A DNA stretch of 64,000 nt. Source: a virus. The stretch's first letter is position 1. Every line of letters begins with the position of its first letter. Made by a program: the position numbers and the translations under genes. Below the pieces are notes generated by a model. The model did not search any database and was not told where the DNA came from. It was given only the letters and a program-made list of their open reading frames with translations. The stretch lies in the IMG/VR virus record IMGVR_UViG_3300042519_001902, positions 1 through 64,000 of that record; one strand, 5' to 3'. This document shows, piece after piece, positions 23 through 62,398 of this stretch.

Positions 23-9175
<9,153 letters not shown>

Positions 9176-10828: not shown

Positions 10829-10936
10829 GTGCTCAGAGGAGAACGGAGTTGACCGAGATTACCGGTTGTTACCCAGTGGCAAACGAAACCAACACGAAAA
10901 ATGCAACCAGATGCAAACGGAAATAGCCAAAACAGC

Positions 10937-12145
10937 ATGAGTTTTGGGTCACAAATCAAGCCGGGCGCTCGCGAATATGCCAACGACGCACCCATCATTA
11001 GCCGGGTCTCCAAGATCTACCGTCCCGACCGGGCCAGTCCTCATCTGGTCCAGTGGGGGCGCGGCCAAGACCGCCGAACCGAATCGTTCAAAACCCCCGA
11101 GGAGCAGGAGGCACGGTACGCTGAGATAGCCGGACGCCTTCAGCGGAATGGAGACGACTTCGTCTTCAATCGGCAGGCCCAGATCGACTGGGCTGCGTTC
11201 ATGTCGACGATTGGCGACGCATCCTGGGTGGATGTCGTCGCGGGTTGGCGCGAGAACCTGAAGCGCCATGAGCTGGTCCGATCCCGCAAGACGGTAGGCG
11301 AGGCGGCGAAGGAATACATCGCCCACTGCCTGTCGCTGAGGGATACCGGGCAGATGTCGCCCGATACGTTTCGTCAAAAAAGACAGAAGATCAGTTTCCT
11401 CGGTACGAAATTCAACACGGTCCCGCTGTGCGATGTAACTACTGAGATGCTTGAACAGTGGCTCGATGAGTTGCTCGGCGAGCTCGGCCTGTCGGCGGCG
11501 GGCACCTTTAACAACTACCTCAAACCCGTCCGTACTTTTTTTAATTTCAACAAGAAGCACGTCGCGCTCAACCCCGCTGTTGGCATCCCTCTGCGCAATG
11601 CTAGCATCGATGAAGTGGGGGTGCTCACCCCGAAGCAGACCGCTCGACTGTTCGCTTATGCCCTGAAGCACCGGCCCGAGACCCTCGGTCGGCTCGCTCT
11701 GGAGGCATTTGCAGGGTTACGTTTCACTTCCGCTGCAACGCTAGCGAAGGAGGAAATTAACTTCGAGGACAAAGGGATCACCCTTCTGGCGCGAAAAATT
11801 AAAACTCGCCGTCGTCGTTACATCGACGGGTTGCCTGAGAACTTTTGGGCTTGGATCGATAAGACGACCGAAGCGTGCTGGCGAATGAAGAGGAGTCAGT
11901 GGATGCACATAAAGACCGACGTGTTTGAAGGGGCTGACGTACCCCATCCGCAAAACTGCCTGCGCCACTCGTTCTGCACGTACCACGTCTCGGCTTACAA
12001 GAACCCGGGGCTGACGGCGACTCTCCTCTGCCACCAGAATCAGGCTCAGTTGTGGGGGCACTACAACGGAATCGCTAGCCAAGCAGCAGGGCTGACCTAC
12101 TTCTCGATTAAGCCCGAGAACGTGGAGCAGATCGCGGCGGGCTAA
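10937..12145 (+). CDS. int: Tyrosine recombinase / integrase
   Basis: 402 residues from this ATG; an in-frame ATG 36 bases upstream (10901) is possible. Catalytic boxes visible: box I AFAGLRFTS (Arg262), a beta-hairpin with KIKTRRRRYIDG (candidate Lys), box II NCLRHSFCTYH (Arg343-His344, with Asn where many members have His), and a C-terminal LWGHYNG with the probable nucleophile Tyr376. The NCLRHSF...TYH arrangement resembles integrases seen in Verrucomicrobia and Planctomycetes. It stands alone on the plus strand behind a strong terminator and next to a tRNA-shaped element, the usual place of an integrase beside attP. A second recombinase converges on it from the minus strand. Confidence 0.85.
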   Translation: MSFGSQIKPGAREYANDAPIISRVSKIYRPDRASPHLVQWGRGQDRRTESFKTPEEQEARYAEIAGRLQRNGDDFVFNRQAQIDWAAFMSTIGDASWVDVVAGWRENLKRHELVRSRKTVGEAAKEYIAHCLSLRDTGQMSPDTFRQKRQKISFLGTKFNTVPLCDVTTEMLEQWLDELLGELGLSAAGTFNNYLKPVRTFFNFNKKHVALNPAVGIPLRNASIDEVGVLTPKQTARLFAYALKHRPETLGRLALEAFAGLRFTSAATLAKEEINFEDKGITLLARKIKTRRRRYIDGLPENFWAWIDKTTEACWRMKRSQWMHIKTDVFEGADVPHPQNCLRHSFCTYHVSAYKNPGLTATLLCHQNQAQLWGHYNGIASQAAGLTYFSIKPENVEQIAAG

Positions 12146-12430: not shown

Positions 12431-12729
12431 GCTGCGACTTGTGCTGAATGTGGCACGGCTCGGTATTGGTACAGCCCCTTGCCGAGGTACCTCTTGTCGA
12501 CTGTCCAAGAACCGAAGCGCGGTTTTCGCATGTGTCGCAACTGGGCGGACACCGAAGCGGGCGGGTCTCGGGTAACCTTGCTGATCTGGGATAACGTACG
12601 CCAGGCACCGTCGCCCATTAAATCTCTAACCCGTACGTGCTGATGCACGAGCCGAGCCCGATCACGCGTGTCCTCGTAACCGGCCCCGGTGAATTCTAGT
12701 TGGTGGTTCATAGTGAAAATCTCAGGCAT
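12427..12729 (-). CDS. Winged-helix DNA-binding protein
   Basis: 100 residues. The segment VRDLMGDGAWRTLSQISKVT, then PPASVSAQLRHMRK, and RYLGKGLYQYR, reads as helix-turn-helix plus wing and resembles small phage proteins in which this motif follows a line like RVLxLMxDGRWRTLxEIS. It starts inside the last codons of the integrase (8-base overlap) and ends in an ATGA overlap, so it is coupled to both. It could regulate the integrase operon or assist replication. An internal Met at residue 7 is an alternative start. Confidence 0.7.
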   Translation of the reverse strand: MPEIFTMNHQLEFTGAGYEDTRDRARLVHQHVRVRDLMGDGAWRTLSQISKVTRDPPASVSAQLRHMRKPRFGSWTVDKRYLGKGLYQYRAVPHSAQVAA

Positions 12730-13735
12730 GCACGTATCCCTCGGTCGTAACCGTGGAGGTATGACCCAGCTTGACGCGGATCTCGTCGATGGTGTCGCCG
12801 TGCGCAGCTCGGCGGGATGCGAACGTGTGGCGCAGGCAGTGGAATGATTTACCCTCGATGCCGAGGCGGCGCAGGATCCGCCCGAAGTACGTGCTGTGCG
12901 TAGCCCGCTTGTTCAGATCCTCCGTGAGCGCGGCGTGAACGGGGAATACGTACTGGCTGGAGTTGCGAAAGAGGGTACGCAGCAGCGCCTCGGTCTCGCC
13001 AAGGAGCGGCATTTCGATCCGGCGGTCACGCTTGTCGGTCCAGACGATGAGCCGGCCCTGCTTCGCGAAGCTGGCCCACTCAAGCTGGGAGATGTCGGAT
13101 AGGCGCAGCCCGTAGTTGAGCGACAGATGAATCGCGACCTTCCAGAACGGGTCTTCGATAGTCGACAGGACATCGAGATCCAGCTCGGTGAAGGGCTCGC
13201 GGGTCTGCTTCTCCTTCTGCTCGAAGGTAAGCCGGTGCATGCGCACTTTGCTGAGGCCAGCCGGATTGCGGACGATGAAGCCCTCGTCGGTGCAGACCTT
13301 AAAGAAATTATCGAGCGACGAGCGTCGTGCGCTGCGAGTCGAAGCAGTCGTGCCGTCGTGGGCGTTGACGTAGTCGTCGACATGGTGGAACGAGGCCATC
13401 GTGATCGGCTTGTCGGCTAGCTTGGTCACGACGAGGAACCGCCGGATGTTGGCCTCGTAGCCGTACAGCGTAGTGGGGGACAGACACAGCTTGGTGTCGG
13501 CTAGGGCGCGCCACTTCACGAGGGCTTGCTCGCCGGTGATGCGGCTGTCGCTAGTGAGTCGTTGGATGGCCTCGGCAGTAAGGAGCCTCGCCTTCGCGGT
13601 GAACTCGATGTCTTCTAACTTGGCGGCTTTGGCTAGCCGTTTCGCCACGGCACGGTCTTTGGTGTCGAGGTTGATGGGGGTACTTCCGGTCAGGTGGGCG
13701 AAGTAAATGCCCTTATGGTTGGGTTTCAGTTTCAT
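12722..13735 (-). CDS. Tyrosine recombinase (second)
   Basis: 337 residues. N-terminal SAM-like core-binding region (about 60-160) and a catalytic domain with all expected residues: YGLRLSD (Arg), a Lys in the TDKRDRRIEM hairpin, HCLRHTFAS (His-x-x-Arg-His), KLGHTS and the C-terminal nucleophile in TEGYVHA (Tyr334). It is more canonical than the plus-strand recombinase and unrelated to it in detail. It lies within the minus-strand accessory operon, overlapping both the coiled-coil gene (23 bases) and the winged-helix gene. It could be the true integrase, or serve resolution or inversion; the sequence does not settle which. Confidence 0.85.
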   Translation of the reverse strand: MKLKPNHKGIYFAHLTGSTPINLDTKDRAVAKRLAKAAKLEDIEFTAKARLLTAEAIQRLTSDSRITGEQALVKWRALADTKLCLSPTTLYGYEANIRRFLVVTKLADKPITMASFHHVDDYVNAHDGTTASTRSARRSSLDNFFKVCTDEGFIVRNPAGLSKVRMHRLTFEQKEKQTREPFTELDLDVLSTIEDPFWKVAIHLSLNYGLRLSDISQLEWASFAKQGRLIVWTDKRDRRIEMPLLGETEALLRTLFRNSSQYVFPVHAALTEDLNKRATHSTYFGRILRRLGIEGKSFHCLRHTFASRRAAHGDTIDEIRVKLGHTSTVTTEGYVHA

Positions 13736-20602: not shown

Positions 20603-20931
20603 GCTCGGCCCTCCGCTTTGGCGATGGCGGCGCGGGCGAAGTCGAGTGCGTCACGTTCCTCCGCAACCAAATCGACTTCGCCCAGGTCGGCGTGATCACC
20701 GACGAGTCGCTTCAGCGCGATGAGCAGGTCCGTGTTCACGGCGTGGTGGATCGGCTCGGCGGTGGGTACCTCCCACTTGAAGAGCGCGTCGCGAGCGGAC
20801 TCGATCAAGGTCGTAGCCCACTTGGCTTCGTCCTCGGTGAGTTGCAGCGACGAGCAACTCTCGTCGATCTGAAACAACACGGCGTCGATTTCGTTTCTCG
20901 TAAGGGGTCCAACTTCGATGATCATTTTCAT
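20599..20931 (-). CDS. Hypothetical helical protein
   Basis: 110 residues, acidic and helical. The C-terminal DALDFARAAIAKAEGRA resembles the end of many small phage proteins (xxARAAIAKAEG). No catalytic motif. ATGA-coupled on both sides. Confidence 0.55.
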   Translation of the reverse strand: MKMIIEVGPLTRNEIDAVLFQIDESCSSLQLTEDEAKWATTLIESARDALFKWEVPTAEPIHHAVNTDLLIALKRLVGDHADLGEVDLVAEERDALDFARAAIAKAEGRA

Positions 20932-21281
20932 TTTGGTGATTCCTCCTCTGGTAGGTGTTCAACTTTGCCCATCCATGGCTCAGGCCGGATGGCTCGCACC
21001 CAATCGGTGAACGACGGGATGCGGCCAGCGAAGTCCTCCTTAACGTGCTGCTCTCCGACCCAGCGCGTTGGGATAGACCGACCGTTGGTTAGCGTGATAG
21101 CCGCACCGAAGGTGCGCTCACATTCAAAGATGCCCTGAGCATGGTGGCGCAGGGCACGATGGCGGAAGTCGGCGATGATTTCTTTGCTCGCGTCGAACCA
21201 CTGATGGATCGCGAGGTAATCTTCGATGACTCCGCCCCACTTGCGGACGCTCGACTGAGCGTGGTGGTAGGGGTTAGCCAT
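20928..21281 (-). CDS. DUF6915-family protein
   Basis: 117 residues from the internal ATG at 21281; a longer frame upstream is a shadow of the next gene. It matches DUF6915 along its length: MANPYHHAQSSVRKWGG, EDYLAIHQWFDASKEIIADF, RHRALRHHAQGIFECE, FGAAITLTNGR, then RWVGEQHVKEDFAGRIPSF and DWVRAI. The His/Asp/Glu-rich core (HRALRHH...E...GEQHVxED) looks metal-binding, but no activity is known. ATGA-coupled downstream. Confidence 0.85.
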   Translation of the reverse strand: MANPYHHAQSSVRKWGGVIEDYLAIHQWFDASKEIIADFRHRALRHHAQGIFECERTFGAAITLTNGRSIPTRWVGEQHVKEDFAGRIPSFTDWVRAIRPEPWMGKVEHLPEEESPK

Positions 21282-21282
21282 G

Positions 21283-21714
21283 TTAGAGGGTCTCGTTGTC
21301 GACTTCGATCTCGATGACGTTCGTCTCGTGGTGCCACTCGATGGTGCCTTCTTCCACGTCGATGACGAACGACCCTTGCGCGCCGTCGTTGTTCTCCCAC
21401 CCGTCGTGCTTCTCCTCCAGTTTACCGTAGCATAGATTCTCAATCGCTTCGCGAAGACCTACGGTTCTCGGTTCGCTGACTTTGTATGTGCGGACGTAGG
21501 TCGTGCCGCCCATGTCGTAGCCGCCCACGATATCGCGCTGCTCGATCTTGACGTCGTCGACTACGACCCCGGCTCCGAAGTCAGGCTCGTCGACTTGGCC
21601 GTCATCTCCCGACCCGCTGTAGTTGATGGTGCATTCCTTGACCCCGGCTGCTCGGAGAGCGGCGAGGATGTTCTGCTTGTTATCTTCGTATGCTTTTTTA
21701 GTTTCTGCGTTCAT
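21283..21714 (-). CDS. DUF6878-family protein
   Basis: 143 residues. Matches the DUF6878 pattern: LRAAGVKECTINYSGSGDDGQVDE near the start, EAIENLCYGKLEEKHDGWENNDGA late and a C-terminal HHETNVIEIEVDNETL. The start is taken at 21714 because the upstream part of the frame (LATNNNDNNN) is just the translated AACAACAAC leader. Role unknown; DUF6878, DUF6915 and DUF6876 cluster in this operon. Confidence 0.8.
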   Translation of the reverse strand: MNAETKKAYEDNKQNILAALRAAGVKECTINYSGSGDDGQVDEPDFGAGVVVDDVKIEQRDIVGGYDMGGTTYVRTYKVSEPRTVGLREAIENLCYGKLEEKHDGWENNDGAQGSFVIDVEEGTIEWHHETNVIEIEVDNETL

Positions 21715-25329: not shown

Positions 25330-25551
25330 TTAATAACACACGGGCATCGACGTCACGATGGGGCGCTCAGCGTTGACGATGCTGCGGCGCAGCGCGTCGA
25401 GATTCGTGATCGGTGCGGACTTCGTGCGGTAGCCTTTGCCTTTGCACGTTGGAGTGCGGAAGGACGTGGTCGCTCTCGACCAGCCCGTGATGTCGCCGAA
25501 GCGGATGGATTTCGGGCGGTCGTGATCTAACGTAGCGTGGTGGTGTTTCAT
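25330..25551 (-). CDS. Small basic hypothetical protein
   Basis: 73 residues from the ATG that overlaps the previous stop (25548-25551). His/Arg/Thr-rich (MKHHHATLDHDRPKSIRFGD), with CKGKGYRTKSAP. No family recognised. The coupled ATGA start is the main support. Confidence 0.5.
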   Translation of the reverse strand: MKHHHATLDHDRPKSIRFGDITGWSRATTSFRTPTCKGKGYRTKSAPITNLDALRRSIVNAERPIVTSMPVCY

Positions 25552-25706
25552 GAGGTGATCCATGCGTTGAACGCTAGCGTTCGGGTTTCTTTCGCTGCCT
25601 CGAAGATCGCTGCCGCGTCGGGGCAGCGGATGTTCTTCAGGTAGTGGTTGAATGCAGCGGTCGCTGCCTTGTCGGCTGACTTGTAGATCGGATACAGTGA
25701 TTTCAT
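25548..25706 (-). CDS. 52-residue helical protein
   Basis: A short frame, ATG at 25706, TGA overlapping the next ATG. Translation begins MKSLYPIYKSADKAATAAFN, continues HYLKNIRCPDAAAIFEAAKE and ends ITS. Amphipathic helices and the ATGA junction downstream make it credible. Function unknown. Confidence 0.55.
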   Translation of the reverse strand: MKSLYPIYKSADKAATAAFNHYLKNIRCPDAAAIFEAAKETRTLAFNAWITS

Positions 25707-25963
25707 ACGGGCACGAAAAAGCCACCGACACGGGATTCATTGTGTACGGTGGCTTTTATGGTGCCCCCGTTCGTGAGAACGGGAGCGAACACACGCGGTC
25801 GCAGCGGTCGCGTGTGAATGGGGTCGTCGTGCTGCGTTAAACGACGAATGCCCGCACGTTCTTTTAACGTCGGGCGCTTCCTTTCTCGATGAGGTGTGGC
25901 GCGGACAAGATTCTGAGCGTGTGCTGAACTTGTCTGGCGGATCGGCTTTGTTTTTACAGGCAA
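25703..25963 (-). CDS. Doubtful ORF over the hairpin zone
   Basis: 86 codons, Arg/Pro/Thr-rich, ending with an ATGA overlap onto the gene at 25706. It is crossed by four strong inverted repeats (25718-25875), and its composition looks like structured non-coding DNA read in frame. Only the C-terminal IKATVHNESRVGGFFVPV looks protein-like. Confidence 0.25.
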   Translation of the reverse strand: MPVKTKPIRQTSSAHAQNLVRATPHRERKRPTLKERAGIRRLTQHDDPIHTRPLRPRVFAPVLTNGGTIKATVHNESRVGGFFVPV

Positions 25964-26526
25964 ACCGTCGACCTGTTTTGTTACACCGCATTTGTCAGCG
26001 GTGAGTCAGTGTCCCCAGATTCATTTTGAACACGGCGCGAAGTGTCTTTCAGTTGCCAAGTGACGCGGTGAGTCCAAACGAAGTGCCGAGAGCAGAGTTT
26101 CGTTCGTGTTACACCGCGCAATTGCGCCGAGGTGTGTCGAAGTGGGTGAGTGCGAGGCGAAGCGCACGTTGAGCCGATTCCTGCTTTGCGTGACGGCTTG
26201 CGCCGTGACGATGCGGGCGAGGTTTCTTGTTATTCCATAACGCGGAACGCATAGCGTTCTAATCCCAAAACGGTCGCGGACGCTATCCTTTGCGGCGAGT
26301 TGGCTTTGCGTGCATAGCACGCGGGCGAGTGTGAAGGTCGGAGAAACCTGATCGTGATATCACGCGGGCGATTTGAAACGTGCGACCGCATAGCGGTCGC
26401 GACCTTCGCCCGCATAGCGGGCGGCGGAAATGGCGTTGCAAATCTGACTTGGCGTGACTGTAAAGAGCGGGCGAGACGCATTGCGGCGGCTCAAGCTATT
26501 CCCCCGCCATGCGGGCGAGGGAATAG
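25718..26526. ncRNA. Dense array of about 13 short hairpins
   Basis: At least 13 inverted repeats in 810 bp: 25718-25757, 25766-25783 (7-bp stem, GTGA tetraloop), 25790-25816, 25850-25875, 25984-26003, 26111-26135 (GCGCAATTGCGC core), 26193-26206, 26245-26259, 26308-26322, 26353-26364, 26382-26400, 26407-26423 and 26497-26526. Four share the loop ATA between GC and GC (stems GAACGC, GCGTGC, GCGACCGC, CGCCCGC), with different but perfectly matched arms. GCGGGCGA recurs beside several. No convincing ORF covers 25964-26543. The arms change together, which suggests selection for structure: a non-coding RNA, protein-binding hairpins, or hairpin promoters. Strand of transcription unknown. Confidence 0.55.
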
Positions 26527-26543
26527 GTCGAAACGTCGCGGCT

Positions 26544-26993
26544 TTACTTGGCGGCGGCGGCGGCTTCCAAGGTCGCGACCTTCGCCCGGTACTTTTCAAG
26601 CAACGCGGCGGCCTTGGCGGCGGTCTTGGCGGCGGCGGCGGTTGTGTCGACTAGTCGACAATTCCACCCCGTCTTGGTCTTGGTAACTCGTGCGACCGCG
26701 ACCGTTGACAAGGTCGCAAGGGCGGCCAATGCGGCCTTGTTTTCCACCCTATGAGACGCAAGGGCGGCTTCAAATTCCGCAAGGGCGGCGGCTTTTGTTT
26801 CGCCCGCCGCGACGCGGGCGAGGACGTACGTGCGCTTGCTTGCATTGCCTTGCGCCAATTCGGCGGCGGTGATTTTGTCATGCCTTGGCAAAACTAGGGC
26901 GGCGGTTTTTTCGGGCGACGCTACTTGAGACGCGGTCGCAATAAGGGCGGAGGCTGATTCTGAGGTCATTTTCGGATGGGATGGACTTGTCAT
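26544..26993 (-). CDS. Ala/Lys-rich protein of foreign codon use
   Basis: 149 residues, about one third Ala, many Lys. Sections: ITAAELAQGNASKRTYVLAR, AALAEFEAALASHRVENKAA, TKTKTGWNCRLVDTTAAA, KTAAKAAALLEKYRAKVATL. Mostly helical and histone-H1-like in composition, with one short TGWNCRLVD motif. Leu codons are TTG, CTT and CTA with a single CTC and no CTG, and Gln is CAA, unlike neighbours that favour CTC/CTG. No CTG or CAG trinucleotide occurs from about 26460 to 26945. This suggests recent acquisition. A perfect hairpin (27000-27018) sits 6 nt before the ATG. A DNA-binding role is possible but unproven. Confidence 0.5.
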   Translation of the reverse strand: MTSPSHPKMTSESASALIATASQVASPEKTAALVLPRHDKITAAELAQGNASKRTYVLARVAAGETKAAALAEFEAALASHRVENKAALAALATLSTVAVARVTKTKTGWNCRLVDTTAAAAKTAAKAAALLEKYRAKVATLEAAAAAK

Positions 26994-26999
26994 TTGCGG

Positions 27000-27018
27000 T
27001 CTCGGCGACGTGCCGAGA
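27000..27018 (-). promoter_or_regulatory. Leader hairpin of the Ala-rich gene
   Basis: Perfect 7-bp inverted repeat TCTCGGC-GACGT-GCCGAGA, six bases upstream of the ATG at 26993 on the minus strand. Close enough to block or regulate ribosome access. Confidence 0.45.
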
Positions 27019-27239
27019 TTCCATAAGTACCTTTCCCGCTAGAAGATAGATAAGCCCTGTTATCGAATCGGGTTTATGTAACACCCTCGGGGCCACCGAC
27101 CCTGGCTTTGGGGGGACTGGCTCTCGGGGTCGAGGGGGGTGCCTGGCTTTTTATATATATGGGGGCCGTCTGTACTTTCCAGAGGTCGAATTCGGTCCCG
27201 AAAGTCGTTTTGGCGGTTCCGGGTTGCCCGATATCGGGT
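27019..27239. other. Non-coding stretch, GC runs and TATATATAT tract
   Basis: No credible gene. Contains G-rich runs (27095-27145), a TTTTTATATATAT tract at 27149-27161, a CGAATTCG palindrome at about 27187-27194 and CCCGATATCGGG at 27227-27238. Possible control DNA for the gene at 27275 or part of an origin. Confidence 0.4.
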
Positions 27240-27264
27240 GTGATCCTATCGTTTTCGGTAACAA
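27240..27264 (+). promoter_or_regulatory. Bipartite element upstream of zinc-ribbon gene
   Basis: GTGATCCTATC-N7-GTAACAA, ending 10 nt before the ATG at 27275. Enclosed by an inverted repeat CGGGTGT/ACACCCG (27235-27241 with 27264-27270). Confidence 0.55.
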
Positions 27265-27274
27265 CACCCGTTTT

Positions 27275-27598
27275 ATGAACCTCAAGCTGCTTGGTCTGCG
27301 TTTTAACCGTCGTCTGGAGTGGCTATCCCTGGTCAAATACGAGGGTCGGAGGGTCGGATGGGGGTCTGTCCTCGTTTCGGTCGTCAAAGCGGCTAGGATT
27401 GCAACGGTTGGGCGGTCTGTGTGGCGGCAAAGGATGCGGGACTGCGCGGTTTGCCCGATTTACGACCGCCGGAGGCACGCCTGCCGGAAAGGAACCCTCG
27501 GTTGCGGCTGCTGGATGCCCCTCAAGGCGATGTTTCGGGGACCGCAGTGCTGGGGCCGCTCGGTTTTACCGGACGGGAAGTTCGGTCACCGGGGGTAA
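27275..27598 (+). CDS. Cys-rich zinc-ribbon protein
   Basis: 107 residues, the only plus-strand gene in the left arm. The start at 27275 is set by the GTAACAA leader ten bases upstream. A basic helical N-terminus (LLGLRFNRRLEWLSLVKYEG) precedes RDCAVCPIYDRRRHACRKGT, then LGCGCWMPLKAMFRGPQCWG. The pattern CxxCPxYDxxxxxCR...GCGCxxPxxA...CWG resembles a small family with paired Cys, probably a zinc ribbon. Similar proteins occur in phages and Verrucomicrobia by memory. Placed beside the origin candidate, it may bind DNA or RNA, but this is inferred. Confidence 0.7.
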   Translation: MNLKLLGLRFNRRLEWLSLVKYEGRRVGWGSVLVSVVKAARIATVGRSVWRQRMRDCAVCPIYDRRRHACRKGTLGCGCWMPLKAMFRGPQCWGRSVLPDGKFGHRG

Positions 27599-27958
27599 AG
27601 CGGTGTCGGCAAATCATTCGCCGTATCTGCCGTTTTAATCGCCTTTTGTAAGTTAATCAAAAGCAGCCAGCTATCCCCTCTTAGGCATTACGGCTATTAC
27701 TTATATATATATATTATATGTATAGTAGGTATAGGTATTAGGGAGCCCCCACCGGTACCGCTGGGGACCGCTGGGGACCGCTGGGGGCAGGGGTTGAAAC
27801 CATTTGCCGTTCGCCGGAATGCCGTTTTATGAGTCATGTCATTATCTGTTAATCGATAACGAAACGGCCAATGCTTTCGGCTATCTGCCTCAGTTGCCGT
27901 CGACGCAGTCCATACCCTGCCTCCCGGCCCCAAACGCAGTCTTCGGCCTGCCTTGAAC
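27599..27958. other. Non-coding region with AT tract and 10-bp iterons
   Basis: 360 bases without a credible gene. TTATATATATATATTATATG (27701-27720) and TATAGTAGGTATAGGTATTA form an AT-rich tract followed by three exact tandem copies of ACCGCTGGGG (27757-27786). A GTTAATCGATAAC near-palindrome lies at about 27848-27860. AT-rich DNA beside short iterons, next to the primase-helicase operon, is typical of a replication origin. Confidence 0.45.
27757..27786. repeat. Three 10-bp iterons
   Basis: ACCGCTGGGG repeated three times head to tail, beside an AT-rich tract. Candidate initiator-binding sites. Confidence 0.7.
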
Positions 27959-27993
27959 AAAAAGACCCAGACCGGGGTTAGCCGATCTGGGTC
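27959..27993 (-). terminator. Rho-independent terminator of the replication operon
   Basis: On the minus strand an 8-bp stem GACCCAGA/TCTGGGTC with a 14-nt loop is followed by five T (A tract at 27959-27963 on the plus strand). It lies 26 bases after the last gene of the operon. Confidence 0.8.
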
Positions 27994-28018
27994 AGGGGGT
28001 GCGGAACTGCGGGTTACG

Positions 28019-57915: not shown

Positions 57916-59811
57916 ATGGCCCGCGAAACTACCTTTTCCGTTCGCGCCACCCAAGGCGGTCGGCTGATGAACACCCCATCCGTCGACAACGTCGGAGTGG
58001 GGAACTACGCCATCAAGACGAACTGGCGGCGCGAGAACGACGCCGAGGTTCCTCGCGAGGGGCACCTCCCGTTCAAAGGGAACACCGCTCTTTCCAACGA
58101 CTCGGCCCAGACTCTATCCATCGGCTCCGACATCATCGGCCTGTGGGAAGCCACTCGCCCCAACGGAGATCGCGCCATCGTCGCCGCCAGCAAGACAACG
58201 ATCTACCGCTTCGACTACACCACCGGAACGTGGCTGACCATCGGCTCCGGCTTCTCGGCGAGCACCACCAACTGGGAGGGCGAACAGCTCGACGGCTACC
58301 TGATCCTGAATAACGGCATCGATCTCCCCGTCACGTTCCGCGTCGAGTCCAGCGAGGTATCCCCGATCTACGAGCTGCGGGAGAACGGGATCGCCTCAGT
58401 CGGGCACATCGCGACGCACAACGGGTTTCTCGTTTGTGCCGACATCTCCGAGGTCGCGAGCACCCACCTGACGACGTTGATGAACAGCGCGACCCCGTAC
58501 GGGGTGGTGAGCGCGGCCAATGTTAACCGGATCCGCTACAAACTTTCATGGAGCGACTTTGGCGCACCTCGCAACTGGTCGCCGGTCGTCTCCGGTACGA
58601 TCCAGTCCGCGACCAAGAACAAGGTCACCCTCGTGTTCCCGATGCCCGTCACCTTCGGCGTCGGCAGCAAGCTCGGCATCATCGGCGCTGGCCCCAATGG
58701 GACGACCCTCGGCGGTCAGTCCGGCTACGACGACGGCGTCACCGTCACAGCGGTCAACGGATCCGAACTCACGCTGAACCTGACGGCGGATGCGTCTCTG
58801 ACCTACCCGCTGAACGTCTCCGTCACGCGCTTCGCTGACGTGTCCACCTTCGCCGGCAGCAGCAGCATCAAGGATGACTCGTCCGCCATTCTGGCGGTCC
58901 GCTCGCTGAAGCAGGTTCTCATCGTCTACCGCGAAACCGGCATCTGGATCGGGCGTTACACGGGCTCCGTCGAGACTCCGTTCCAGTTTCGGCCCGCGTA
59001 TAAGGGTCCAAACGTGCTGGCGCATCCTCGCGCCATTGCCGACATCGACGGCGACTATCATCTCTTCGTCGGCCCCGATAGCGTGTACCGCTTCGATGGA
59101 GCCGGGAGCCCCGCTATCCACCGGACAACCACTGACGCGAGCGCCCTGCTCTTTGCGTCGATTAGTGCGGCTCCGTCCGACTCGGCAGAGAAAGTCTTCG
59201 TCTCGCACAACTCGATCACGCGTGAGTGGTGGTTCCACTACTCGGGCGGCGTGCTCGCCTACAGCTACCTTTACGACTCGTGCAGCACCATCGACACGCC
59301 GTACACCGCTGCGGTGATCGTGCGAAAGCCGAATTCCTCCGATAACATCCCGTGGTCCGTCACTGCTGCGGGCGGTAAAGTGCTGCAACACGCCGTCCTC
59401 GACTCTGGGCCGATCTGCTACACCCGCTCCAGCGTACTGGGGGTAACCACCCCCGTCACCTGCGTGCTCAAACGCGGCGAGATCACGCTCAACGACGATG
59501 AGTCGGAGAAGGACATCAACAGTTACCTGCCGCTGTTTGCGGCGATCCCGCAGGCGACCGGAAGTCAGTTGACGGTGACCCTTTTTGGCCGAGACAACAT
59601 CGCTCAGCCCCCGGAGACCCTGTGCTCCGTCACGTTGGAGGACGCGACGATCAGCCCCTTGATCGAAACGCATTTCAGAAACGTGTACTTCAGCGACTCG
59701 ATTACCTACGTGCCCGGATCCACGACCCAGGTGGCAAAGCTGCTCGGCTGCACCTACAGCTTCAGCCGCGTCGGCTCTCGCGGCGTAACCCGACACGATG
59801 GCACTCTCTGA
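57916..59811 (+). CDS. Tail nozzle / tail tubular protein B-like
   Basis: 631 residues. Beta-propeller-like composition, with repeats such as GLWEATRPNGDRAIVAASKT, IYRFDYTTGTWLTIGSGFSA, GYLILNNGIDLPV, and VLIVYRETGIWIGRYTGS. The line NNGIDLPV...VLIVY is typical of podovirus nozzle proteins. Begins after TAA with ATG sharing its A. Forms the distal tail hub below the connector. Confidence 0.7.
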   Translation: MARETTFSVRATQGGRLMNTPSVDNVGVGNYAIKTNWRRENDAEVPREGHLPFKGNTALSNDSAQTLSIGSDIIGLWEATRPNGDRAIVAASKTTIYRFDYTTGTWLTIGSGFSASTTNWEGEQLDGYLILNNGIDLPVTFRVESSEVSPIYELRENGIASVGHIATHNGFLVCADISEVASTHLTTLMNSATPYGVVSAANVNRIRYKLSWSDFGAPRNWSPVVSGTIQSATKNKVTLVFPMPVTFGVGSKLGIIGAGPNGTTLGGQSGYDDGVTVTAVNGSELTLNLTADASLTYPLNVSVTRFADVSTFAGSSSIKDDSSAILAVRSLKQVLIVYRETGIWIGRYTGSVETPFQFRPAYKGPNVLAHPRAIADIDGDYHLFVGPDSVYRFDGAGSPAIHRTTTDASALLFASISAAPSDSAEKVFVSHNSITREWWFHYSGGVLAYSYLYDSCSTIDTPYTAAVIVRKPNSSDNIPWSVTAAGGKVLQHAVLDSGPICYTRSSVLGVTTPVTCVLKRGEITLNDDESEKDINSYLPLFAAIPQATGSQLTVTLFGRDNIAQPPETLCSVTLEDATISPLIETHFRNVYFSDSITYVPGSTTQVAKLLGCTYSFSRVGSRGVTRHDGTL

Positions 59812-62398
59812 CAAAACCCAGTTCGATGACCGCATCGCGGCCACGTTCTCGACGATCCCGTCGAAGTATCCGCCGCTGCCCAACGATGTCCTGAAGCGGT
59901 TCCCGTCGCTGGAGAGCTGGCAGACGGAGCAGTCGCGCCTCATTGCTCGCGTAAGAGAGGCGCTGGACTCGATGGGCTCGGACTTCGGGATTCCCCTCAA
60001 CAAGGCGCAAGCTACCCAGGAACTCCTGTCGAAGACGGTGGCGACGCAGTACGACGAGCTGTCGGCCCGCATCACGTCCGAGACCACGATCCTAGTGGAC
60101 GAGAACCAGGCACTCGCGCAGCGCACGACCACGATTGAATCCACGATCAACACGCCGACTACCGGTCTGTTGGCTCGGATCAACACGGTTGAGACCACCT
60201 ACGCGACCAAGGACTTCGCTCTAGCGAAGAAGGAAGAAGCCATCACGGCAGCGGTGACATCGGCGAACGGCTACACGGCTGGACAGATAACGTCTCTGTC
60301 TTCGGTTTACGCCACGCCTACGTTCGTCGAGACGAAAAAGTCCGAGGCGATAACCGCTGCGGTGACTTCGGCGAATAGCAGCACTGACGGGAAAATCAGT
60401 GCTCTGTCCTCGGTCTATGCCACTCCTTTGTTCGTTGAGACGAAGAAGACTGAAGCCATCGCGGCAGCGGTGACTTCGGCGAATAGCAGTACTGACGGGA
60501 AAATCAGTGCTCTGTCTTCGGTTTACGCTACGCCTACGTTTGTTGAGACGAAAAAGTCCGAAGCAATCTCGGCAGCGGCGACCGCAGCGACAGGCTACAC
60601 CGATGGTCAGATAAGCAGCCTGTCCTCGGTTTACGCCACGCCTTTGCAGGTCACGTCCACAGTTAACAACCTCATCTCCGCTTCCGTCGGGAGCACATCC
60701 GGTACTATCGGAGCAGCCATCGAGACCGAGCGACTGGCGAGGGCAAACGCCGACGGTAACCTGTCCGGTAAATTCAGCCTCAAGGTGACCGCCGGAAACG
60801 TGGTCACGGGCATGAACATCACCAGCTCCACAGGGGCTGGGACGGATGTCAGCTCGGTCACGTTCCTCGCGTCTGAGTTCAAGATTTTCAACTCAACCAC
60901 CGGCATCGCGCCCTTTGCCGTGGTAGACGGGGTGGTGATTGCGCAGAACATGTTGATCAGCGGAACGCTCCTGGTTAGCGGCAGCATCGCCGCGAGCCGG
61001 TTGAACTTCGTCCCCGTTAGCTCGACCAACGTAGTCGCTTCGATCAACGCCACGGCTGAAGGCATCCAGATCAGCGGTTCTAGAATCCAGATTAACGGCA
61101 GTACTACATTCTCAAGCGGGTACGATCCTTCGACGAAACTCACACCCGGCAGCGCAGCGGCTGACATCAACGCAAACACCACGACAATCAGTGGTGGGAA
61201 GATCACGGCGCGTTCTATTTCAGCGAGTCAGATTCAGGCGGGAACGATTACGGCTAACGAGATCTTTGCTGGGACGATTACGGCAGCGCAGCTCAACTTT
61301 ACGCCCGTCACATCAACCAACGTCATCGCCTCGATCAACGCGACGATTGAGGGCGGGTTGCGGATCACCGGGTCAAAGATCGAGATCAGTGGCAGTACTA
61401 CATTCTCAAGCGGGTATGATCCTTCAACGAAACTCACACCCGGCAGCGCAGCGGCTGACATCAACGCAAACACCACGACAATCAACGGTGGGAAAATTAC
61501 GGCAAATAGTATCACCGCTTCCCAGATAGACGTATCGACCCTTTCGCTGAGCTCTAGTCAGATCGGCGGGACCGCAGTTACCCTATCCGCAATTGGTTCG
61601 GGGCTAAACATCACCAGCGGCGGGGTAATTTTGAGCGGAACTTCGGCTATCCGAAGCAGTAACTACGTTACCGGTTCGGCGGGTTGGGCGATAAAGGCCG
61701 ACGGATCTGTTGAGTTCTCCAGCGGTACGTTCAGGGGAAGCCTCTCCGGTGCCACGGGTACGTTTGCTGGAGCTCTCGACGTCGGAACAGGGAGGGAACG
61801 AAAGCGGATAGAACCTTCAGGGTTGTATGTCGGTGATCTGGTTGCATTTAATAATGTTGGGTTAGACACGGTCCTTTATTTTACCAGCTATATTACTGCG
61901 TCGAGGACGATGTACTTTCGCAGTGGCGGATATACGCCTGAGATTCGCATAGGCGATAGCTTGTACACGGTTTTTGAAAATCTTGGTTTTTCCGCAAGTC
62001 ACGACGGGGCTTTTGCTCGTAGTATGACCGTCGGCCTCAGCGGGTTGACTGTACGGGGCGGTGGATTGAACGTACAGAACGGCGGGGTAAACCAGGCGAC
62101 GATCAGTGCCGCCGGCGACGCAACTTTTTTAGGGGCCGTTACCACGACCAACAACACCTACTCGGGCAGTTTCTCCAGCAACGGAAACGCCACGTTCGGA
62201 TCGCTGACGAACACGCCTTTCTCCAACGCAGCCATCGATGCATTTACCAACACGACCTTCTATTTTCACCCGAACGGCAACAACAGCGTGAGCGGCGGTG
62301 AAGACGGCGGCACAGTGGGCGCGACCACCGGCACCTACATCGCAATTCGGTACAACGGACGCACCGTCTGGGTGCCCTTCTTTACTGCTTTACCTTGA
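59798..62398 (+). CDS. Tail tip / fibre protein with DUF1983-like region
   Basis: 866 residues, overlapping the nozzle by 14 bases. A helical N-terminus (SLESWQTEQSRLIARVREAL), then four 36-residue repeats (SVYATPTFVETKKSEAITAA type, 60294-60640), then beta-helix-like repeats of the TGIAPFAVVDGVVIAQNMLI / LNFTPVTSTNVIASINATIE kind with a 98-residue near-identical duplication (294-bp period, 61097 and 61391). A C-terminal fibre part includes GTYIAIRYNGRTVWVPFF. The middle resembles J-like tail tip proteins. Probably a host-contact fibre attached to the nozzle. Confidence 0.7.
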   Translation: MALSDKTQFDDRIAATFSTIPSKYPPLPNDVLKRFPSLESWQTEQSRLIARVREALDSMGSDFGIPLNKAQATQELLSKTVATQYDELSARITSETTILVDENQALAQRTTTIESTINTPTTGLLARINTVETTYATKDFALAKKEEAITAAVTSANGYTAGQITSLSSVYATPTFVETKKSEAITAAVTSANSSTDGKISALSSVYATPLFVETKKTEAIAAAVTSANSSTDGKISALSSVYATPTFVETKKSEAISAAATAATGYTDGQISSLSSVYATPLQVTSTVNNLISASVGSTSGTIGAAIETERLARANADGNLSGKFSLKVTAGNVVTGMNITSSTGAGTDVSSVTFLASEFKIFNSTTGIAPFAVVDGVVIAQNMLISGTLLVSGSIAASRLNFVPVSSTNVVASINATAEGIQISGSRIQINGSTTFSSGYDPSTKLTPGSAAADINANTTTISGGKITARSISASQIQAGTITANEIFAGTITAAQLNFTPVTSTNVIASINATIEGGLRITGSKIEISGSTTFSSGYDPSTKLTPGSAAADINANTTTINGGKITANSITASQIDVSTLSLSSSQIGGTAVTLSAIGSGLNITSGGVILSGTSAIRSSNYVTGSAGWAIKADGSVEFSSGTFRGSLSGATGTFAGALDVGTGRERKRIEPSGLYVGDLVAFNNVGLDTVLYFTSYITASRTMYFRSGGYTPEIRIGDSLYTVFENLGFSASHDGAFARSMTVGLSGLTVRGGGLNVQNGGVNQATISAAGDATFLGAVTTTNNTYSGSFSSNGNATFGSLTNTPFSNAAIDAFTNTTFYFHPNGNNSVSGGEDGGTVGATTGTYIAIRYNGRTVWVPFFTALP
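60294..60640 (+). repeat. 108-bp tandem repeat in tail-tip gene
   Basis: Anchor CTCTGTC recurs at 60294, 60402 and 60510, with a diverged copy near 60618. Each unit encodes 36 residues. Confidence 0.8.
61097..61510 (+). repeat. 294-bp tandem duplication in tail-tip gene
   Basis: GGCAGTACTACATTCTCAAG at 61097 recurs at 61391, with the following about 110 bases nearly identical. Encodes a 98-residue repeat. Confidence 0.8.

What the first reader, a model, noticed from the sequence alone, without database searches (positions are those of the whole stretch)
25718..26526. Array of about 13 hairpins, several with an invariant ATA loop and covarying stems
Seen directly: inverted repeats packed into 810 bp with almost no coding potential. 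Four share GC-ATA-GC at the tip (26245-26259, 26308-26322, 26382-26400, 26407-26423) while their arms differ and still pair perfectly. A GTGA tetraloop hairpin, a GCGCAATTGCGC core and recurring GCGGGCGA flanks lie among them. Independent change of both arms implies selection on structure. Known parallel: the early promoters of phage N4 are short stems with 3-nt loops read by a virion RNA polymerase. The genome layout here also echoes N4, but no RNA polymerase motif was found in the giant protein. Other options are a phage non-coding RNA, a protein sponge or host-derived palindromes.
Basis: partly seen in the sequence, partly recalled or inferred. Interest (0 to 1): 0.8.

Follow-up and report, generated by a model that had tools for sequence, protein, structure and literature searches.

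The report
Phage cluster of short palindromic hairpins
A circular ~68 kb phage from environmental DNA carries a real cluster of short, perfectly pairing palindromes, four with the same ATA tip, in a non-coding stretch found in no other sequence searched; it looks like a local set of REP-like hairpins rather than N4-type polymerase promoters or a large folded RNA.

Summary
Four perfect hairpins with a GC-ATA-GC tip sit exactly where stated (stems 6, 6, 8, 7 bp); shuffles predict 0.31 such hairpins in the region. About 13 hairpins and six GCGGGCGA motifs lie in 25718-26526, which has no convincing gene. The hairpin-rich zone is wider (24.5-27.0 kb) and overlaps the genome's strongest tetranucleotide outlier (25.5-28.5 kb).

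The N4 reading is not supported. The loop lacks the 5'G and 3'A that N4 vRNAP promoters need. The 3050-aa giant protein has no RNA polymerase profile or motif, although it contains no cysteine, as ejected vRNAPs do. A large ornate RNA is not supported either: there is no Rfam match, and with the local hairpins held fixed the linkers add no folding energy on either strand. Host-dispersed palindromes were not found, but the host is unknown.

Hairpin-rich zones are fairly common in phages: 9 of 173 viral loci have one as strong. The fixed tip with varying arms appeared only here. Best explanation: a lineage-specific cluster of REP-like palindromes in the 3' untranslated stretch of a small minus-strand gene, ending in an intrinsic terminator. 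Architecture is shown; function is inferred. No homologous array exists to test covariation.

The parts
26245..26259 (.). ATA-tip hairpin 1, GAACGC-ATA-GCGTTC, 6-bp stem
26308..26322 (.). ATA-tip hairpin 2, GCGTGC-ATA-GCACGC, 6-bp stem, running into GCGGGCGA
26353..26364 (.). perfect palindrome CGTGAT|ATCACG followed by GCGGGCGA; 93% alike over 15 nt to the 3' half of hairpin 2 with its flank, probable degenerate copy
   Evidence: (D12)
26382..26400 (.). ATA-tip hairpin 3, GCGACCGC-ATA-GCGGTCGC, 8-bp stem
26407..26423 (.). ATA-tip hairpin 4, CGCCCGC-ATA-GCGGGCG, 7-bp stem
26483..26539 (-). long imperfect hairpin just after the stop codon of the gene at 26544-26993 (26-nt arms, 77% complementary), holding a repeat copy CCCGC-CAT-GCGGGCGAG
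   Evidence: (I1, D1)
26189..26210 (.). hairpin CGTGACGGC-TTGC-GCCGTGACG with one mismatch, followed by GCGGGCGA at 26213
26116..26127 (.). palindrome GCGCAATTGCGC
25984..26003 (.). hairpin, 6-bp stem, 8-nt loop
25824..25847 (.). hairpin, 7-bp stem, 10-nt loop
25790..25816 (.). hairpin, 8-bp stem
25766..25783 (.). GTGA tetraloop hairpin, 7-bp stem (TCAC loop on the minus strand)
25717..25757 (-). terminator-like hairpin: 11-bp perfect stem AAAAGCCACCG / CGGTGGCTTTT with T-run on both strands; probable 3' end of a minus-strand transcript
   Evidence: (I19)
26544..26993 (-). 149-aa Ala/Lys-rich ORF directly upstream on the minus strand; no family match; shares the 18-mer GGTCGCGACCTTCGCCCG with the array and holds a TCGCCCGC...GCGGGCGA hairpin at 26800-26821
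   Evidence: (D9)
25548..25706 (-). 52-aa ORF starting about 11 nt after the terminator hairpin; overlaps the next ORF by ATGA
25330..25551 (-). 73-aa ORF, ATGA-coupled to the preceding one

Best explanation
A lineage-specific cluster of REP-like short palindromes in the non-coding stretch between two groups of minus-strand genes. Shown: separate local hairpins with 6-8 bp stems and a fixed GC-ATA-GC tip, mixed with a repeated GCGGGCGA motif, downstream of a small gene and upstream of a terminator-like hairpin, in the most compositionally deviant segment of the phage. Inferred: the copies multiplied locally; they are transcribed on the minus strand as the 3' untranslated part of the gene at 26544-26993; and as RNA they block exonuclease decay and insulate that gene from the genes beyond the terminator.
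For: The hairpins are real and above chance. They behave as independent local elements: with local hairpins fixed and linkers shuffled, the whole stretch folds no better than controls (minus z +0.65, plus z +1.24). Members share tip and flank but differ in the arms, as do published REP families, which have stems of mostly 6-9 bp, loops of 2-3 nt in many families and complementary stem changes (PMC3733652). The transcript layout fits: all nearby genes are on the minus strand, a long hairpin follows the stop codon at 26544, and an 11-bp hairpin with a T-run ends the stretch at 25717. The segment is a tetranucleotide outlier and has no counterpart in the searched stretch of relative G001, as expected of an accessory segment.
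Against: No transcript data. No GTAG or CGTC tag next to the four ATA hairpins, no dispersed copies in the phage, and no RAYT transposase among the ORFs scanned. The 149-aa ORF has only modest coding potential and no relatives. The outlier composition may partly reflect that the stretch is non-coding. Several palindromes lie inside the ORF itself, which a pure 3'UTR role does not explain.
Confidence: 0.42

Rival explanations
1. A stand-alone multi-hairpin non-coding RNA of about 800 nt on the minus strand, with UAU tri-loops on variable stems bound by a phage or host protein (a sponge or regulator).
For: The minus strand folds better than whole-sequence shuffles (z -5.85), with a centroid close to the MFE, and ends in a terminator-like hairpin. 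The tip is fixed while the stems vary, as expected of shape-plus-loop recognition.
Against: All excess folding energy comes from the local hairpins; linkers add nothing. No Rfam match. No sigma-70 promoter match on the minus strand near the array, though other promoter types are not covered. Only four to five of about 13 hairpins share the tip.
Confidence: 0.2
2. Neutral by-product: imperfect palindromes in unconstrained non-coding DNA made perfect by template switching during replication, with short local duplications spreading the tip.
For: Arms are almost all perfectly Watson-Crick with next to no G-T pairs on either strand (0 and 1), which fits DNA-level correction. Zones of equal hairpin excess occur in 9 of 173 viral loci. 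Near-copies such as the 18-mer shared with the gene show local duplication.
Against: Does not by itself explain why the tip and its orientation stay fixed in all four copies while the arms change.
Confidence: 0.18
3. An array of binding sites for a DNA-binding protein (operator or partition-like site), recognising GCGGGCGA and/or GCATAGC in double-stranded DNA.
For: GCGGGCGA is enriched (6 against 11 in the rest of the genome, Poisson P 9.5e-9 before correction for the number of words), mostly in one orientation. Other phages show operator-like arrays, e.g. TGTCAAT-N4-ATTGACA in L020.
Against: A DNA-binding protein would conserve the arms, which are the part that varies. Spacing between motifs is irregular. 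No regulator gene was recognised next to the array.
Confidence: 0.13
4. N4-like DNA hairpin promoters read by a polymerase delivered with the virion.
For: 3-nt loops on short stems closed by a C:G pair. The 3050-aa virion-type protein has no cysteine, as reported for ejected vRNAPs (PMC3715699), and relative G001 has an open frame of 2974 aa with 41% identity to part of it.
Against: The loop is ATA (or TAT), without the 5'G and 3'A that N4 needs for extrusion (PMC4496689). No RNA polymerase family or motif in the giant protein; two chance-like motif-B strings lie in other ORFs. Copies sit within 180 bp with no gene between them, whereas N4-like phages have three promoters each preceding a gene.
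Confidence: 0.04

Closest known systems
REP / palindromic repeat families (GTAG- and CGTC-tagged), PMC3733652
   Same: Short non-coding palindromes, stems 6-9 bp, 2-3 nt loops, complementary stem changes between members, grouped copies, possible RNA role.
   Different: Found as one cluster in a phage rather than dispersed in a bacterial chromosome; no GTAG/CGTC tag at the ATA hairpins; no RAYT found.
N4 vRNAP early promoters (PMC4496689, PMC3715699)
   Same: 3-nt loop on a short variable stem with fixed closing pairs; the phage also has a giant cysteine-free protein.
   Different: Wrong loop bases, no polymerase found, clustered without genes between copies.
GOLLD and ROOL large phage RNAs (PMC12286853)
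   Same: About 800 nt, phage-borne, structured on paper.
   Different: No Rfam match, no tRNA genes in the window, no folding signal beyond local hairpins.

Membership tests
N4-type vRNAP promoters | Short stem with 3-nt loop | tested here: met
N4-type vRNAP promoters | Loop with 5'G and 3'A and a recognised central purine on the template strand | tested here: not met
   Loop is ATA or TAT; requirement from PMC4496689
N4-type vRNAP promoters | Giant virion-borne T7-like RNA polymerase in the same phage | tested here: not met
   3050-aa protein: no PHROG, Pfam, NCBIfam or relevant PDB match and no motif B; zero cysteines noted. A very diverged polymerase cannot be excluded by sequence.
N4-type vRNAP promoters | A few promoters, each preceding an early gene | tested here: not met
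   Four hairpins within 180 bp of non-coding DNA
REP palindromes | Stem 6-13 bp, mostly short loop, complementary stem variation | tested here: met
   definition
REP palindromes | GTAG or CGTC (or variant) tag at one end | tested here: not met
   Flanks of the four ATA hairpins read on both strands; one untypical CGTC at 26189-26210
REP palindromes | High copy number, dispersed in the genome | tested here: not met
   All four long-stem GCATAGC copies lie within 180 bp; host genome unknown
REP palindromes | Linked RAYT (Y1) transposase | tested here: inconclusive
   None among the ORFs scanned against Pfam; small ORFs not all scanned
Large ornate phage RNA (GOLLD, ROOL) | Match to the family covariance model | tested here: not met
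Large ornate phage RNA (GOLLD, ROOL) | Long-range conserved structure supported by covariation | tested here: inconclusive
   No homologous array found; linker-shuffle test negative
Intrinsic terminators | G+C-rich stem followed by a T-run | tested here: inconclusive
   Met for the outermost hairpin 25717-25757 only; the ATA hairpins have no T-run
Type III toxin-antitoxin (ToxIN-like) | Toxin gene of the ToxN/AbiF kind after the repeat RNA and terminator | tested here: not met
   The ORFs beyond the terminator are 52 and 73 aa with no PHROG or PADLOC match

The most novel reading that the evidence does not exclude
The ATA-tip hairpins are extruded from DNA and recognised, with arms free to vary, by a phage protein delivered with the DNA (the cysteine-free 3050-aa protein or a partner), giving an N4-like start signal that evolved outside the known N4 polymerase family.
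Probability: 0.04. Interest if true: 0.8.

Novelty: new variant of a known kind. Interest (0 to 1): 0.3.

Why it matters
Short palindromic repeats with variable arms and a fixed tip are known from bacterial chromosomes; a compact private cluster in a phage would be a small, tractable case for asking whether such elements are selected as RNA hairpins, as DNA structures, or not at all. It also gives a base rate: hairpin-rich non-coding zones occur about once per 190 kb of viral DNA in this sample (9 loci in 1.74 Mb), so hairpin density alone should not be read as a new RNA or promoter system.

Tried and rejected
N4 promoters: rejected on loop bases, polymerase search and layout. Large ornate RNA: no Rfam match and negative linker-shuffle test. 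Type III toxin-antitoxin: no toxin family. Replication origin: the array is not at an inflection of cumulative GC skew (minimum near 1, maximum near 38.1 kb). Host-dispersed palindromes: the 19-mer of hairpin 3 gave 12 scattered single hits in genome contigs, with no enrichment of the 11-mer core in those genomes; CGCATAGCG is below its reversed control in most of 398 Pseudomonadota, and sites read in two of the genomes where it was enriched (plus two others) are nearly all in open frames with 3-6 bp stems. Doublet search in IMG/VR: 118 stretches, none with three or more long-stem GC-ATA-GC hairpins; the close pairs are tandem copies with identical or near-identical arms. Searches for relatives by DNA polymerase, terminase, primase, the 149-aa ORF and DNA found only identical fragments or distant phages. 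AlphaFold of the 149-aa ORF was too poor to use (pLDDT 56.6).

Full report
What the window is. The window is part of a virus record of 68,584 bases. Its first and last 127 bases are identical, and an almost identical contig (G002) runs across the junction, so the genome is circular or circularly permuted, about 68.46 kb. It carries two integrase genes, a family A DNA polymerase, a helicase, an exonuclease, a terminase and tail proteins. Two other contigs are 99.99-100% identical over parts of it; the stretches compared do not cover the array. The closest different relative, G001, has a DNA polymerase 39% identical in its best stretch.

The observation. Dinucleotide shuffles of the region give 0.31 three-nt-loop hairpins of that stem length, and 4 were seen; for loops of 3-8 nt the figures are 1.41 and 6. 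They are the only ATA-loop hairpins among 23 three-nt-loop hairpins in the window. GCGGGCGA occurs six times in the stretch and eleven times in the rest of the genome. About 13 hairpins is a fair count if the terminator-like hairpin and two near-perfect ones are included.

How unusual it is. The hairpin excess extends from 24.5 to 27.0 kb and is the strongest in the window. But 9 of 173 viral loci fetched here (1.74 Mb) contain a 1-kb window with an equal or larger excess, some of it from operator-like arrays, terminator-like hairpins and simple repeats. These loci were fetched for other reasons and are not a random sample. The density is therefore notable, not exceptional. The shared tip on differing arms is the distinctive part: among 118 IMG/VR stretches holding two CGCATAGCG words close together, none has three or more long-stem GC-ATA-GC hairpins, and the close pairs are tandem copies with identical or near-identical arms.

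Surroundings. All neighbouring genes are on the minus strand. Upstream lies a 149-aa Ala/Lys-rich ORF (26544-26993) with no family match in PHROGs, NCBIfam, Pfam or PADLOC; a long hairpin follows its stop codon. Downstream, an 11-bp hairpin with T-runs on both strands (25717-25757) ends the stretch, and about 11 nt beyond it begins a pair of small ATGA-coupled ORFs. The segment 25.5-28.5 kb is the top tetranucleotide outlier of the genome, which may mean foreign origin or simply little coding sequence. No array was seen between the primase and DUF6915 genes of G001, and GCATAGC shows no such cluster in G001 or G003.

Local hairpins or a large RNA? As a whole the minus strand folds better than shuffled sequence (z -5.85) and the plus strand also does (z -4.82). 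When the local hairpins are held fixed and only the linkers are shuffled, the advantage vanishes on both strands (z +0.65 and +1.24). The signal is therefore a string of local hairpins, with no evidence of long-range architecture. The hairpins to be fixed were chosen by hand and cover 36% of the stretch. Mismatches within extended stems do not point to one strand.

N4 comparison. N4 promoters need a loop with 5'G and 3'A and a recognised central purine (PMC4496689), and N4-like phages have three, each preceding a gene (PMC3715699). Here the loop is ATA or TAT and four copies sit in 180 bp with no gene between. The 3050-aa protein shows no polymerase by profile, motif or PDB sequence. One point does favour an ejected-protein role: it contains no cysteine at all, as reported for vRNAPs of N4-like phages, and G001 has an open frame of 2974 aa with 41% identity to part of it. 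That is consistent with a giant ejection protein without being a polymerase.

Host palindromes. The 19-mer of hairpin 3 occurs once each in 12 unrelated genomes, mostly as isolated hairpins, and those genomes are not enriched in its 11-mer core. In 398 Pseudomonadota the 9-mer CGCATAGCG is generally rarer than its reversed control; sites read in two enriched genomes lie nearly all in open frames without long stems. The host is unknown, so this does not exclude a host family.

Conclusion. The best-supported reading is a private cluster of REP-like palindromes in a non-coding accessory stretch, probably the 3' untranslated part of a minus-strand transcript. The architecture is shown; transcription and function are inferred. 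Whether the arms are kept paired by selection cannot be decided without homologous arrays.

Noticed in passing
window 23-9175: Gene for a 3050-aa protein with no cysteine and no family match; G001 has an open frame of 2974 aa with 41% identity over residues 91-341. Looks like a giant ejected virion protein.
   Followed up: partly
window 26994-28018: About 1 kb of further low-coding DNA with an ATATATATA run, three copies of ACCGCTGGGG (27757-27786) and a strong minus-strand terminator at 27993-27964.
   Followed up: no
window 10901-12145 and 12722-13735: Two integrase genes facing each other, about 577 bp apart.
   Followed up: no
window 20928-21443: DUF6915 protein; relatives in 36 viral loci and clear full-length matches in 11 of 398 Pseudomonadota genomes sampled.
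   Followed up: partly
window 60225-60646: 108-bp tandem repeat, about 3.8 copies, inside the tail-tip-like gene 59798-62398 (866 aa, no cysteine).
   Followed up: no
window 2862-2917: Perfect hexamer repeat CTCCTG, 9.3 copies, inside the giant gene.
   Followed up: no
L020:9043-9225: Run of TGTCAAT-N4-ATTGACA-type palindromes, looks like an operator array in another phage carrying a DUF6915 gene.
   Followed up: no
L187:2250-2510: Hairpins sharing GTTTT...AAAAC outer arms with different inner stems in another viral contig.
   Followed up: no
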